From Deltaproteobacteria bacterium (lineage in GTDB: Bacteria > Desulfobacterota > Desulfobacteria > Desulfobacterales > ETH-SRB1), in assembly GCA_030611115.1 (NCBI GenBank), contig JAUWQK010000019.1, positions 1-10,700 on the forward strand: a DNA stretch of 10,700 bases. Reading direction: 5' to 3'. The translations under genes were made by a program, and so were the position numbers. The notes beneath the pieces are model-generated. The model searched no databases. It saw nothing but the letters and a program-made list of their open reading frames with translations, and had not been told where the DNA came from. This document shows, one piece after another, positions 1,261-10,656 of this stretch. Each line of letters opens with the position of its first letter. Position 1 is the stretch's first letter.

Positions 1261-1286
1261 AACCTTGAACCCTGAACCTTGAACCG
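1261..1286. repeat. Heptad repeat array A (TGAACCN x3)
   Basis: Three tandem perfect heptads, TGAACCC (1266-1272), TGAACCT (1273-1279) and TGAACCG (1280-1286), fill the gap between the convergent stops of the zinc-ribbon gene and coaX. The array directly abuts the coaX stop codon. There is no hairpin plus T-run, so it does not look like a standard terminator. Confidence 0.8.
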
Positions 1287-2054
1287 TTATTTAATCTTTT
1301 CATATATAATGCGCAGCCCTTCAAGGGTCAGTGAGGGCTCAACCTCTTCTATGCTGTCACAAACATCAGCCATAAGACTTGATACCCCCCCCGTAGCAAT
1401 CACCTTGGGAGCAGTGCCCATTTCAATCTTCATTCGCCTTACTATTCCATCCACAAGACCTGCATATCCATAAATAATACCAGACCTTATGCTGCTTGCC
1501 GTATCTTTACCTATAATTTTTTCCGGGCGAGAAAATATCTCAACCCTTGGAAGTTTGGATGCCTTTAAGAACAGAGCTTCAGCGGAAATCATGATTCCGG
1601 GGCATATTGCTCCACCCAGGTATTCACCATCTTCTGAAACTGCATCAAAGGTTGTTGCTGTACCAAAATCAACTACAATCAGGCTGGTTTTATACTTTTC
1701 AAATGCAGCAATTGAGTTGGCAATTCTGTCTGCCCCCACCTCATCAGGATTATTGTAAAGTATCGGCATTATATTGACAGACTTGGCATCTACCCATAAT
1801 GGATACTGCCCTAAGTATTTACGGCAGAAAGAATCAAGAACGCTTACCAGGGGCGGAACAACGCAGGAAATGACAATACCGCTGATATCTTTAGATTTTA
1901 TATCACTTCCTGCAAAAAGATTGGCTGCGATAACATTGAATTCATCTTCCGTTATTGTATTTACAGTTCTTATTCTCCAGTCTTTTACCAGTTCCTTGCC
2001 ATTGTAAATACCAATTACGGTGTCTGTATTTCCAACATCTATAACGAGAAGCAT
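1287..2054 (-). CDS. coaX: Type III pantothenate kinase
   Basis: CoaX catalyses ATP-dependent phosphorylation of pantothenate to 4'-phosphopantothenate, the first step of coenzyme A synthesis, in the cytosol. It belongs to the ASKHA fold and is unrelated to CoaA. With an ATG start the protein is 255 residues, normal for the family. Visible motifs are DVGNT (6-10, phosphate loop 1), GADR (107-110, pantothenate site), DFGTATTFD (129-137, phosphate loop 2), GGAICPG (147-153), TGGVS (221-225) and the C-terminal LTLEGL. I chose ATG at 2054 because MLLVIDVGNT is the usual family N-terminus. A GTG at 2063 would add three residues; neither start has a clear ribosome binding site. It is the last gene of the minus-strand run, 146 bases after ybbR across a repeat-filled gap. 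A run of eight G (C at 1385-1392 on the plus strand) lies in the TGGVS codons. Confidence 0.95.
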   Translation of the reverse strand: MLLVIDVGNTDTVIGIYNGKELVKDWRIRTVNTITEDEFNVIAANLFAGSDIKSKDISGIVISCVVPPLVSVLDSFCRKYLGQYPLWVDAKSVNIMPILYNNPDEVGADRIANSIAAFEKYKTSLIVVDFGTATTFDAVSEDGEYLGGAICPGIMISAEALFLKASKLPRVEIFSRPEKIIGKDTASSIRSGIIYGYAGLVDGIVRRMKIEMGTAPKVIATGGVSSLMADVCDSIEEVEPSLTLEGLRIIYEKIK

Positions 2055-2075
2055 TATAACCACATAAGGTTGTTA

Positions 2076-2194
2076 GGTTCACAGTTCACGGTTGGTTGTC
2101 TCAACATCTTCAAAACATTCAATTTTCATCCTCGCCTGCCGTCGGCAGGCAGGGCTCTCTAACCGTGAACCCTTGAACCCTGAACCGTGAACCT
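2076..2194. repeat. Composite inverted heptad repeat B between ybbR and coaX
   Basis: The left arm (2076-2093) has GGTTCAC-type heptads at 2077-2083 and 2084-2090. The right arm (2161-2194) has four TGAACCN heptads: 2166-2172, 2174-2180, 2181-2187 and 2188-2194, with one extra T at 2173. The arms are inverse complements of the same motif, so the 119-base segment could fold into a long imperfect hairpin. A separate strong palindrome (2134-2150) sits inside. The arrangement resembles a miniature palindromic element, although no transposase or target-site duplication is visible. Confidence 0.75.
2134..2150. repeat. Perfect GC-rich palindrome (8-bp arms, 1-base centre)
   Basis: GCCTGCCG at 2134-2141 is followed by one T and then CGGCAGGC at 2143-2150. 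It lies in otherwise AT-rich intergenic DNA inside composite repeat B. A CAGGCAGG extension (2146-2153) continues past it. It has no T-run, so it is a weak candidate for a terminator and more like a REP-type element or a protein-binding site. Confidence 0.6.
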
Positions 2195-2200
2195 CAGTAG

Positions 2201-8620: not shown

Positions 8621-8626
8621 AGGAGG
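8621..8626 (+). promoter_or_regulatory. Strong ribosome binding site of dnaK (AGGAGG)
   Basis: AGGAGG is a full Shine-Dalgarno match six bases before ATG 8633. It is far stronger than the site of grpE, consistent with DnaK being made in excess of GrpE from a shared message. Confidence 0.8.
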
Positions 8627-8632
8627 AGAACA

Positions 8633-10567
8633 ATGGGCAAGATAATAGGAATAGACCTTGGCACCACAAATTCATGTGTGGCTATAATGGAAGGGGGTGA
8701 AGCAAAGGTAATAACCAACCCCGAGGGAGGGCGTACAACTCCTTCTATTGTTGCTGTTACAGAAAGTGGTGAAAGATTGGTAGGCCAGGTTGCAAAGAGG
8801 CAGTCAATCACAAATCCGGAGAATACGGTCTTTGCTGTGAAGAGACTTATAGGGCGGAAGTTTGCTTCACCTGAAGTACAAAATGATATTAAGATACTTC
8901 CTTACAAACTTGAGCAGGCAAGCAATGGTGATATACGAATAAATCTTCGTGGGAAGCAACACAGCCCTGCAGCAATATCGTCTTTTATACTGGCAAATAT
9001 AAAGAAAACAGCAGAGGAATTTCTCGGAGAAACGGTATCTGACGCAGTAATTACCGTGCCTGCCTATTTTAATGACAGCCAGCGCCAGGCAACCAAGGAC
9101 GCAGGAAAGGTTGCAGGCCTGAATGTTTTAAGAATTATAAACGAACCGACTGCTGCATCACTTGCTTATGGTCTGGATAAAAAAAAGGAAGAAAAAATCG
9201 GCGTCTTTGATCTTGGCGGCGGCACATTTGATATATCCATACTTGAAATTGGAGAAGGTGTCTTTGAAGTAAAATCTACAAATGGTGATACCCATCTTGG
9301 TGGAGAAGATTTCGACCTTCGACTTATCAATTATATAGCAGACGAATTCAAAAAAGACCAGGGTATTGATATAAGAAGCGACAAAATGGCTCTTCAGCGC
9401 CTGAAAGAAGCTGCAGAAAAAGCTAAGATGGAACTATCCACATCAATGGAAACAGATGTAAATCTGCCATTCATAACCGCCGACGCCAGTGGGCCAAAGC
9501 ACCTTAATATAAAAATAACAAGAGCCAAACTTGAAGCGCTTGTAAGTGATTTGCTCGACAAACTTGAGAAACCATGCCAGGTTGCACTTAAAGATGCAGG
9601 TCTCTCTCCCAAAGATATTGATGAGATTATACTTGTTGGCGGCATGACTCGTATGCCGGCTGTTCAGGAAAGAGTTAAAAAACTATTTGTCAGAGAACCT
9701 AACAAAGGCGTTAACCCTGACGAAGTTGTTGCGGTGGGGGCAGCCATTCAGGGAGGAGTGCTTAAAGGAGATGTTAAGGACGTTCTGCTCCTCGATGTTA
9801 CGCCCCTTTGTCTTGGAATCGAGACCCTGGGCGGCGTTATGACAAAGCTAATCGAAAAAAACACAACAATTCCTACCAAAAAAAGCCAGATTTTCTCAAC
9901 CGCTGCAGACAGCCAGCCTGCGGTTTCTATTCATGTTCTGCAGGGAGAAAGGGAAATGGCGGCAGGTAACAAGACCCTGGGACGATTTGAACTCGTTGGG
10001 ATTCCACCAGCAGCAAGGGGTGTGCCTCAAATAGAAGTAACCTTCGACATCGATGCCAACGGTATTGTAAATGTATCTGCAAAGGATCAGGCTACAGGCA
10101 AGGAGCAATCAATCCAGATTACTGCCTCTTCCGGTTTGTCAAAGGAAGAAATAGACAACCTCGTAAAAGATGCGGAACTTCATGCAGAGGACGACAAAAA
10201 GAAAAGGTCTTTGGTAGAAGCACGCAATACTGCGGATGCTCTGATTTATTCAACTGAAAAATCCTTAAAAGACCTTGGAGACAAGGTTGACAGCGCCACC
10301 AAGAGCAAGGTTGAGGATGCAACAAGCCGGCTTAAAAAAGCAATGGAAGGGGACGATGAAGCTGAGATCAAGAAGTTGAGCGATGAATTAACTCAATCTT
10401 CCCATAAACTGGCTGAAGCCATGTATCAGCAGGCATCCCAAGCTCAAACTGGAGAACAGCAAGCCGGCGCTGGCGCTGAAAGTGCACAACAGGCAGGGGT
10501 TTCTTCATCCACAGATGAAGATGTGGTAGATGCCGATTTTGAGGAAGTAAAAGACGAGAAAAAGTAA
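8633..10567 (+). CDS. dnaK: Molecular chaperone DnaK (Hsp70)
   Basis: DnaK is the ATP-driven Hsp70 that binds hydrophobic segments of unfolded proteins, working with DnaJ and GrpE. The 644-residue length is standard. The nucleotide-binding domain shows GIDLGTTNS (6-14), the VPAYFNDSQRQATKDAG segment (142-158), VFDLGGGTFD (191-200, with T198 at the autophosphorylation position) and ILVGGMTRMPAV (333-344). The interdomain linker DVLLLDVTP (383-391) precedes the beta-sandwich substrate domain (about 392-505). The helical lid ends in a Gln/Ala-rich disordered stretch (about 598-624) and a C-terminal EEVKDEKK tail, close to the EEVKD seen in many bacterial DnaKs. The full set of motifs suggests an active protein. 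No dnaJ follows within the window; a large inverted repeat begins eight bases after the stop. Confidence 0.98.
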   Translation: MGKIIGIDLGTTNSCVAIMEGGEAKVITNPEGGRTTPSIVAVTESGERLVGQVAKRQSITNPENTVFAVKRLIGRKFASPEVQNDIKILPYKLEQASNGDIRINLRGKQHSPAAISSFILANIKKTAEEFLGETVSDAVITVPAYFNDSQRQATKDAGKVAGLNVLRIINEPTAASLAYGLDKKKEEKIGVFDLGGGTFDISILEIGEGVFEVKSTNGDTHLGGEDFDLRLINYIADEFKKDQGIDIRSDKMALQRLKEAAEKAKMELSTSMETDVNLPFITADASGPKHLNIKITRAKLEALVSDLLDKLEKPCQVALKDAGLSPKDIDEIILVGGMTRMPAVQERVKKLFVREPNKGVNPDEVVAVGAAIQGGVLKGDVKDVLLLDVTPLCLGIETLGGVMTKLIEKNTTIPTKKSQIFSTAADSQPAVSIHVLQGEREMAAGNKTLGRFELVGIPPAARGVPQIEVTFDIDANGIVNVSAKDQATGKEQSIQITASSGLSKEEIDNLVKDAELHAEDDKKKRSLVEARNTADALIYSTEKSLKDLGDKVDSATKSKVEDATSRLKKAMEGDDEAEIKKLSDELTQSSHKLAEAMYQQASQAQTGEQQAGAGAESAQQAGVSSSTDEDVVDADFEEVKDEKK

Positions 10568-10574
10568 TGCGCCC

Positions 10575-10656
10575 GTTCACGGTTTACGGTTGTCGGTTTA
10601 CAGTTAACAGTTTTATGTTTTGATCAACCGTTAACTGTTAACCGTGAACCGTAAAC
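10575..10656. repeat. Inverted heptad array G downstream of dnaK
   Basis: The left arm contains five consecutive 7-base units of the form GTTNNCR (10575-10609). The right arm has four inverse units (10629-10656), all with a CGTTAAC/CGTGAAC-like pattern. The inner 19 bases of each arm (10594-10612 and 10626-10644) are complementary at 17 of 19 positions around a 13-base loop, so a long hairpin is possible. There is no T-run after it, so it is not a typical intrinsic terminator, but it may stop or protect the dnaK transcript. Confidence 0.8.

What the first reader, a model, noticed from the sequence alone, without database searches (positions are those of the whole stretch)
1261..10656. Family of 7-base-period repeats at most gene junctions
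Tandem heptads with consensus GGTTCAN (complement NTGAACC) occur at 1266-1286, 2077-2090 with 2166-2194, 3180-3203 and 10575-10656, with shorter relatives at 5955-5965 and 7527-7547 and a GGGRYYR variant at 4098-4132. Units differ by substitution but keep the exact 7-base step. They lie between genes, mainly the minus-strand run, and coding bodies look free of them. Short heptanucleotide tandem repeats (STRR) of heterocystous cyanobacteria are a known analogue. Here the units often form inverted pairs, which suggests either slippage-plus-inversion growth or a mobile palindromic element. Role is unknown: RNA hairpins, protein binding or neutral expansion.
Basis: partly seen in the sequence, partly recalled or inferred. 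Interest (0 to 1): 0.7.

Follow-up and report, generated by a model that had tools for sequence, protein, structure and literature searches.

The report
Heptad repeats: arms of mobile elements
The seven-base repeats between these genes look like leftover arms of small jumping DNA elements whose intact copies carry one gene for a small four-helix protein, and the same gene-between-repeat-arms layout turns up in many other bacteria, which may explain a long-standing puzzle about such repeats.

Summary
The heptads are real (5 GGTTCA pairs at spacing 7; none in 200 shuffles) but not a free-standing repeat. In relatives of this uncultured Desulfobacterota genome they form inverted arms of short mobile elements with ends GTAASCGTTCACGG or GTAACTACTCAGG and 8-bp target duplications (14 of 36 exact). 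Orthologous junctions are filled, empty or altered. Intact copies carry one gene of Pfam 23S_rRNA_IVP (S23p); the window's 2055-2204 array keeps ten codons resembling the start of such a gene.

The plan 'IVP gene between inverted arms of 7- or 8-mers, each element with its own unit' recurs widely: 72 of 84 loci in these genomes and 67 of 76 in named genomes exceed the 95% point of 149 control genes; 16 of 16 cyanobacterial plasmid loci exceed their own control (16 of 34 hit records read).

Ends and duplications resemble IS66; mobilisation by an IS66 transposase is inferred, and 12 of 18 genomes show no PF03050 match. Against: no duplications beyond GTAA-ended elements; only 10 of 28 GGTTCA arrays tested have a partner arm.

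The parts
1257..1286 (.). Solo heptad array (TTGAACC CTGAACC TTGAACC); no partner arm
   Evidence: matches arms of IVP elements L199, L202, L203, L204 and L180. G008 has one unit fewer; G004 has a 207-base element with 8-bp duplication AATTATTT at this junction; G007 and G005 have 11 and 8 bases.
2055..2204 (-). Internally deleted IVP element: two GGTTCA arms, right end CAGTAGTTAC of type B, worn left end
   Evidence: Matches IVP elements L202, L203, L204, L199, L180. No target duplication is left.
2100..2129 (-). Ten codons MKIECFEDVE, remnant of the start of an IVP gene
   Evidence: Three-frame translation and the intact proteins MKIERFEDIE... of L202 and L204, MKIEQFEDIE of L203.
3172..3212 (.). 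Short pair of GGTTCA arms with type-B right end CCTGAGTAGTTA
   Evidence: Weak match to L203 (17 bases, E 0.001); related short versions in G001, G003, G008.
4089..4133 (.). Type-A end GTAACCGTTCA followed by a GGGRYYR-type heptad arm
   Evidence: Matches arms of IVP elements L149 and L167.
5954..5966 (.). Remnant of about two units; G002 and G003 hold a paired-arm insert here
   Evidence: no match of its own among the IVP elements.
7526..7548 (.). Two element ends fused (GTAACCGTTCACGG-AACGGTTAT), interior lost
   Evidence: G004 and G008 have elements of 144 and 107 bases at this junction; weak matches to L224 and L160.
10569..10662 (.). Hairpin element with GTTNACR heptad arms, loop TTTTATGTTTTGATCAAC, no gene
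   Evidence: copies of 87 and 80 bases in G007 and G004 with duplication AAAGTAAT, absent in G001, G003, G005; the right duplication is lost in the window. Matches L160, L182, L206, L203, L202.

Best explanation
The heptad arrays are arms and fossils of small mobile elements. An intact GTAA-ended element is about 440-505 bp: an end beginning GTAA, an arm of tandem heptads, one gene of about 120 residues of the 23S_rRNA_IVP/S23p four-helix family, the same unit as an inverted arm, and the mirrored end, with an 8-bp duplication of the target. Deletions remove the gene and leave hairpins (as behind dnaK), paired arms with a few IVP codons (2055-2204), single arms or fused ends. Gene-less copies carry duplications of their own, so they still spread. 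Arms gain and lose whole heptads. Shown: arms, ends, duplications, differing orthologous junctions, intact copies. Inferred: that an IS66-family transposase moves the GTAA-ended elements in trans, that solo arrays are decayed copies, and that the IVP protein acts on the arms or their hairpin.
For: 36 end-bounded elements: 14 with an exact 8-bp repeat, 20 with 7 or 8 of 8 matching, against 26 of 5000 for mispaired flanks; no exact repeat of any other length from 4 to 14 (two of the 14 are one orthologous insertion). PF05635 matches in 18 of 18 genomes, 0 of 14 control genomes. Full-length IVP loci with GTAA-type ends and a duplication: L224 8/8, L160, L202, L211 7/8, L182 6/8. Deleted relatives of L224 elsewhere, e.g. 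G004 contig C2 19428-19708 at 96-97%. IVP remnant in the window. Inverted arms around IVP genes against three controls. IS66 ends start GTAAGCG with 8-bp repeats (PMC11946415, passages); IS66 copies in these genomes have ends of like design, one a single base from type B over 13 bases.
Against: 12 of 18 genomes, among them the element-rich G003, G004 and G007, have no PF03050 match, and the four IS66 copies with recognisable ends lack an 8-bp duplication. L152, L158 and L206 have GTAAC-type ends but only 4 of 8 flanking matches. Beyond GTAA-type ends flanking repeats are at chance. Only 10 of 28 GGTTCA triple arrays have a partner arm within 240 bases, and only 1 of 30 such loci has a recognisable IVP piece within 100 bases.
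Confidence: 0.75

Rival explanations
1. Neutral short tandem repeats: heptads arise in place by polymerase slippage, with no element behind them.
For: Copies differ by multiples of 7; many arrays are solo; published view that heptamers are favoured by slippage (Mrazek, as cited in PMC4679880, section read).
Against: Slippage gives neither inverted partner arms, nor shared ends, nor 8-bp target duplications, nor a gene of one family between the arms.
Confidence: 0.08
2. Binding sites of a regulator, selected at gene junctions, as proposed for TAACTGA arrays and for Geobacter repeats.
For: Arrays are intergenic; such roles were proposed in PMC4679880 (abstract and sections) and PMC2700814 (passages).
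Against: The same junction holds GGTTCA, other repeats, other inserts or nothing in close relatives, and the unit differs from element to element. No expression data were available.
Confidence: 0.05
3. Independent arrays that IVP genes later entered as hot spots.
For: IVP genes and arrays occur together.
Against: Entry into an existing array would leave both flanks in the same orientation; the flanks are inverted.
Confidence: 0.03
4. The IVP protein itself is the active part: an Avd-like protein that binds the arms as hairpin DNA or RNA and helps copying, perhaps with a reverse transcriptase; the IS66-like ends are secondary.
For: Predicted fold (mean pLDDT 95.5) matches S23 structures 2gsc and 2rld and next the Avd subunit of diversity-generating retroelements, 4dwl and 8ub7, TM 0.79-0.80, at Foldseek E 0.014-0.021; inverted arms in other phyla without GTAA-type ends.
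Against: Sequence profiles do not reach Avd in the PDB; no reverse transcriptase was sought; gene-less copies carry clean 8-bp duplications.
Confidence: 0.25

Closest known systems
Intervening sequences of bacterial 23S rRNA with an S23p gene
   Same: S23p/IVP gene; in Coxiella tandem heptamers (GACAGAT, 2 or 3 copies) stand before the gene, and inverted repeats and a transposition origin were discussed (PMC4990558, passages).
   Different: Here the elements lie between protein genes, the arms are heptads on both sides, and ends with 8-bp target duplications are seen.
MITEs mobilised by IS66-family insertion sequences
   Same: Ends starting GTAAG/GTAAC and 8-bp duplications (compare PMC11946415 and PMC3281130, passages).
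   Different: Heptad arms and an IVP gene in intact copies; no IS66 with the exact ends was found.
STRR heptanucleotide repeats of cyanobacteria and TAACTGA arrays of Beggiatoaceae (PMC4679880)
   Same: Intergenic tandem heptads, lineage-specific units; on cyanobacterial plasmids such heptads flank IVP genes.
   Different: Published descriptions that I read do not link them to a gene or to element ends; I did not test chromosomal STRR or TAACTGA arrays.
Repeat families of Geobacter metallireducens (PMC2700814)
   Same: Tandem heptads and octads, in two classes paired on opposite strands (passages); MTYCTGA is the complement of TCAGRAK, the unit beside IVP genes on Nostoc plasmids.
   Different: Read there as regulator binding sites or RNA elements; IVP genes were not sought in Geobacter here.
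Avd of diversity-generating retroelements
   Same: Same fold by structure comparison.
   Different: 13-15% identity in that comparison; whether retroelement parts lie nearby was not searched.

Membership tests
IS66-mobilised element (MITE) | Terminal inverted repeats beginning GTAAG/GTAAC | tested here: met
   Types A and B in relatives; worn ends in the window.
IS66-mobilised element (MITE) | 8-bp target duplication | tested here: met
   14 of 36 exact, 20 of 36 at 7-8 matches; null 26 of 5000. Not preserved at any window copy.
IS66-mobilised element (MITE) | Resident IS66 with the same ends | tested here: inconclusive
   PF03050 in 6 of 18 genomes; ends alike but not identical, best 12 of 13 for type B (L237) and 10 of 11 for type A (L141); none in G003, G004, G007.
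IS66-mobilised element (MITE) | Transposition by IS66 proteins | not testable with these tools
   Needs an assay.
23S rRNA intervening sequence with S23p | S23p/IVP gene | tested here: met
   Intact in relatives; only a remnant in the window.
23S rRNA intervening sequence with S23p | Inverted arms that can pair | tested here: met
   72 of 84 and 67 of 76 loci above the 95% point of control genes.
23S rRNA intervening sequence with S23p | Location inside a 23S rRNA gene | tested here: not met
   The window arrays lie between protein genes and beside the SRP RNA gene.
23S rRNA intervening sequence with S23p | Excision by RNase III | not testable with these tools
   Needs RNA work.
STRR-type heptanucleotide repeats | Tandem intergenic heptads | tested here: met
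TAACTGA arrays (PMC4679880) | Unit TAACTGA | tested here: not met
   Window units are GGTTCAN, GTTNACR and GGGRYYR.
REP/BIME elements | REP-associated Y1 transposase in the genome | not tested
   No search for Y1 transposases was made; the 8-bp duplications point elsewhere (recalled).

The most novel reading that the evidence does not exclude
IVP/S23p elements are one bacteria-wide class of mobile element: a single Avd-like gene between inverted arms of element-specific 7- or 8-mers, whose protein acts on the arms or their hairpin. The heptanucleotide repeats scattered through bacterial genomes (STRR of cyanobacteria, TAACTGA arrays, repeat classes of Geobacter) and the 23S rRNA intervening sequences are its fossils.
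Probability: 0.35. Interest if true: 0.93.

Novelty: new variant of a known kind. Interest (0 to 1): 0.84.

Why it matters
Two old puzzles meet: why many bacterial genomes carry dispersed heptanucleotide repeats, and what the S23p gene inside 23S rRNA intervening sequences is for. If the arrays are arms of IVP elements, both become testable by ordinary genomics and one transposition assay. It would also caution against reading such arrays as regulator sites by default.

Tried and rejected
Own genome: neither the file nor a search of it was available, so genome counts come from relatives. IS66 as resident partner: four copies with recognisable ends, none with the exact type-A or type-B end, none with an 8-bp duplication, no PF03050 match in 12 of 18 genomes. 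A Pfam scan of two short peptides read from deleted copies gave no IVP match, so the identification rests on PF05635 and on DNA comparison with intact copies. Target duplications around all IVP arms were sought three ways and found only with GTAA-type ends; a sixth locus (L207) passed the count but has no such end and I treat it as chance, as I do 1 of 46 in the named set. The first test of inverted arms used mispaired IVP loci as null, which is inflated because units recur: 36 of 89 above its 99% point and 76 of 89 above its 95% point in these genomes, 10 and 33 of 79 in named genomes. It was replaced by windows 700 bases away and by genes of like size. BLAST of window arrays against IVP elements rests partly on shared repeat units; the array at 5954-5966 had no match and those at 3172-3212 and 7526-7548 only weak ones. 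Flanks of L224 had no full counterpart in other genomes, so no empty site could be shown for it. Papers on an IVP/heptad link: the searches listed none that I recognised (one search found no paper; of 42, 21 and 238 papers in the others 15, 10 and 15 were listed); most subscription journals are not held.
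Full report
Setting. The window carries coaX, ybbR, folP, ftsH, tilS, SRP RNA, grpE and dnaK (gene names read by me from the translations; SRP RNA from Rfam). Its own assembly is not held; G001 is nearest. G014, of the same family, has a contig C208 of 55,228 bases, the length of JAPVVG010000208.1, 'Desulfobacteraceae bacterium isolate SB_S3_bin18', which came up with the same element (L249, identical ends to L152). 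I infer an uncultured Desulfobacterota genome.

GGTTCA occurs 16 times, 13 in 730 intergenic bases, with five pairs at spacing 7 against none in 200 shuffles. Three GGTTCAN units in a row occur in 24 of 58 relatives: 16 of 17 in the family (up to 108 matches, none in G001) and 8 of 41 outside; the reversed pattern occurs once in each of 2 of 58. In 400 kb of G004 taken without regard to arrays, 16 stretches have lag 7, all intergenic; other lags from 4 to 12 give 0-2. In stretches of G003 and G057 mostly chosen for matches, lag 7 gives 43 (35 intergenic) and 76 (60 intergenic), lag 8 gives 8 and 24, lag 9 gives 1 and 13. The window itself has none at that strict threshold and three at a looser one. 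Units are many, so the recurring property is the period rather than one sequence.

Junctions vary. Nine junctions were compared. Behind dnaK the hairpin is in the window, G002, G004 and G007 and not in G001, G003 and G005; G006 reads N. Between grpE and dnaK the window, G001, G004, G005, G006 and G007 have no array while G002 and G003 have a paired-arm insert. At 1256-1286 the window and G008 have GGTTCA heptads (three and two units), G004 a 207-base element with CCAATTT-type heptads, G003 and G006 other inserts, G002, G005 and G007 none; G001 could not be bridged there. The dnaK copies measure 94 (window, my count), 87 (G007) and 80 (G004) bases.

They are mobile elements. Longer inserts share ends GTAASCGTTCACGG (type A) or GTAACTACTCAGG (type B) and have flanking repeats of 8 bp. 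Over L061-L140, with L134 left out as a duplicate of L063, 36 end-bounded elements were counted: 14 with an exact repeat of 8, one of 3, 21 with none of 3 or more; 20 of 36 match at 7 or 8 of 8, against 26 of 5000 mispaired flanks. Two of the 14 are one orthologous insertion.

Intact copies carry a gene. Pfam 23S_rRNA_IVP (PF05635) has 1-20 matches in each of 18 genomes, 189 in all, and none in 14 control genomes. I read 89 of the 189, mainly the longer matches; some are orthologous to each other. Five have GTAA-type ends and a duplication of at least 6 of 8: L224 (8), L160, L202, L211 (7) and L182 (6); three more, L152, L158 and L206, have such ends with 4 of 8. L224 has CCAATTT arms, L202 type-B ends with GGTTCA arms, L160 type-A ends with GGTTCAC arms. 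Gene-deleted relatives of L224 abound in G004, for example contig C2 19428-19708, matching 934-1080 and 1192-1335 of L224 at 96-97%. At the site of L160, G004 has the 444-bp element; G006 jumps from 1395 to 1896 of the query with three bases between, so it lacks the element and some 57 adjoining bases; G008 keeps 70 bases of the gene and the right arm, joined to a different left arm.

The window fits. The reverse strand of 2055-2200 reads MKIECFEDVE and then runs into the arm; intact IVP proteins of L202 and L204 begin MKIERFEDIE. Arrays at 1257-1286 and 2055-2204 match the arms of L199, L202, L203, L204 and L180; 4089-4133 matches L149 and L167; 10569-10662 matches L160, L182, L206, L203 and L202; 3172-3212 and 7526-7548 match weakly (L203; L224 and L160); 5954-5966 matches none. 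These matches rest partly on shared units.

The plan is general. The flanks of IVP genes are inverted copies of tandem 7-mers or 8-mers with a unit of the element's own. Against windows 700 bases further out, 78 of 84 loci exceed the control's 95% point and 72 of 84 its maximum; periodic stretches occur in 76 of 168 flanks against 6 of 138, mostly lag 7 or 8. For named genomes: 68 of 76, 49 of 76, 35 of 152 against 5 of 130 (loci with short flanks dropped, 5 of 89 and 4 of 80). Against 149 genes of 100-160 codons from G003, G004 and G057, 72 of 84 and 67 of 76 exceed the 95% point; the three best 'controls' were themselves IVP-like, the fourth was not. On plasmids IVP genes were found in 34 records, mostly cyanobacterial. 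I read 16 of the 34; all are cyanobacterial, two (L325, L326) nearly the same insertion. All 16 score above their own control; units, by eye mostly heptads, include GGGAGTA, GGGAACA, AAAGCTA and TCAGAAG/TCAGGAG.

Known neighbours. IS66 ends start GTAAGCG and leave 8-bp repeats (PMC11946415, passages; table lines of PMC3281130, passages). Four IS66 copies here have ends GTAACTTCTCAATAACCT, GTAAGCGCTCAATAAACC, GTAAATATTCGGCTT and GTAACTATTCAGGGGT, the last 12 of 13 like type B; none has an 8-bp duplication. The Coxiella intervening sequence holds an S23p gene preceded by tandem heptamers of varying number, and a transposition origin was discussed (PMC4990558, passages). IVP genes also occur in 16S and 23S rRNA inserts of CPR bacteria (PMC11270868, passages). 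Geobacter metallireducens has heptad and octad repeats read as regulator sites or RNA elements (PMC2700814, passages); the identity of MTYCTGA with the complement of TCAGRAK is my comparison. The IVP fold is that of S23 structures and, by structure only, of Avd.

Limits. The mobiliser is inferred. Duplications are confined to GTAA-type ends; elsewhere flanking repeats are at chance. Of 28 GGTTCA triple arrays 10 have a partner arm, and 1 of 30 loci has an IVP piece within 100 bases, so decay to solo arms is assumed for the rest. The relatives are assemblies of tens to hundreds of contigs, in which repeats may break contigs or be lost.

Noticed in passing
window 7643-7891: Large bacterial signal recognition particle RNA, 143.6 bits.
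   Followed up: no
L062, L063, L064, L065, L072 (junction SRP RNA to grpE): Relatives carry another inverted-repeat insert with ends like ATAGACTTTCAGATAA...TTATCTGAAAGTCTAT that the window lacks.
   Followed up: no
L062 (G002), several junctions: A further insert family with ends GGAACGTGGACGAA...TTCGTCCACGTTCC sits in four of the compared junctions of G002.
   Followed up: no
window 2134-2150: Palindrome GCCTGCCGTCGGCAGGC inside the deleted IVP element; G004 and G008 have a longer, altered version there.
   Followed up: no
window 3081-3192: The start region of ybbR with its upstream junction matches other places in G003, G010, G015 and G017 at 82-88%; unexplained.
   Followed up: no
L320, L324, L327: On cyanobacterial plasmids IVP genes stand between cas6 and cas4 or between cas10 and a Cmr3-type gene.
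   Followed up: partly
L063 and L064, folP-ftsH junction; L228, L231: Inserts with AGTGCCTAAAGTGAGC-type repeats at this junction in G003 and G007 resemble the arms of IVP loci L228 and L231.
   Followed up: partly
PMC2700814 (passages): Published Geobacter heptad MTYCTGA is the complement of TCAGRAK, the unit beside IVP genes on Nostoc plasmids; suggests those repeats may be IVP arms.
   Followed up: no
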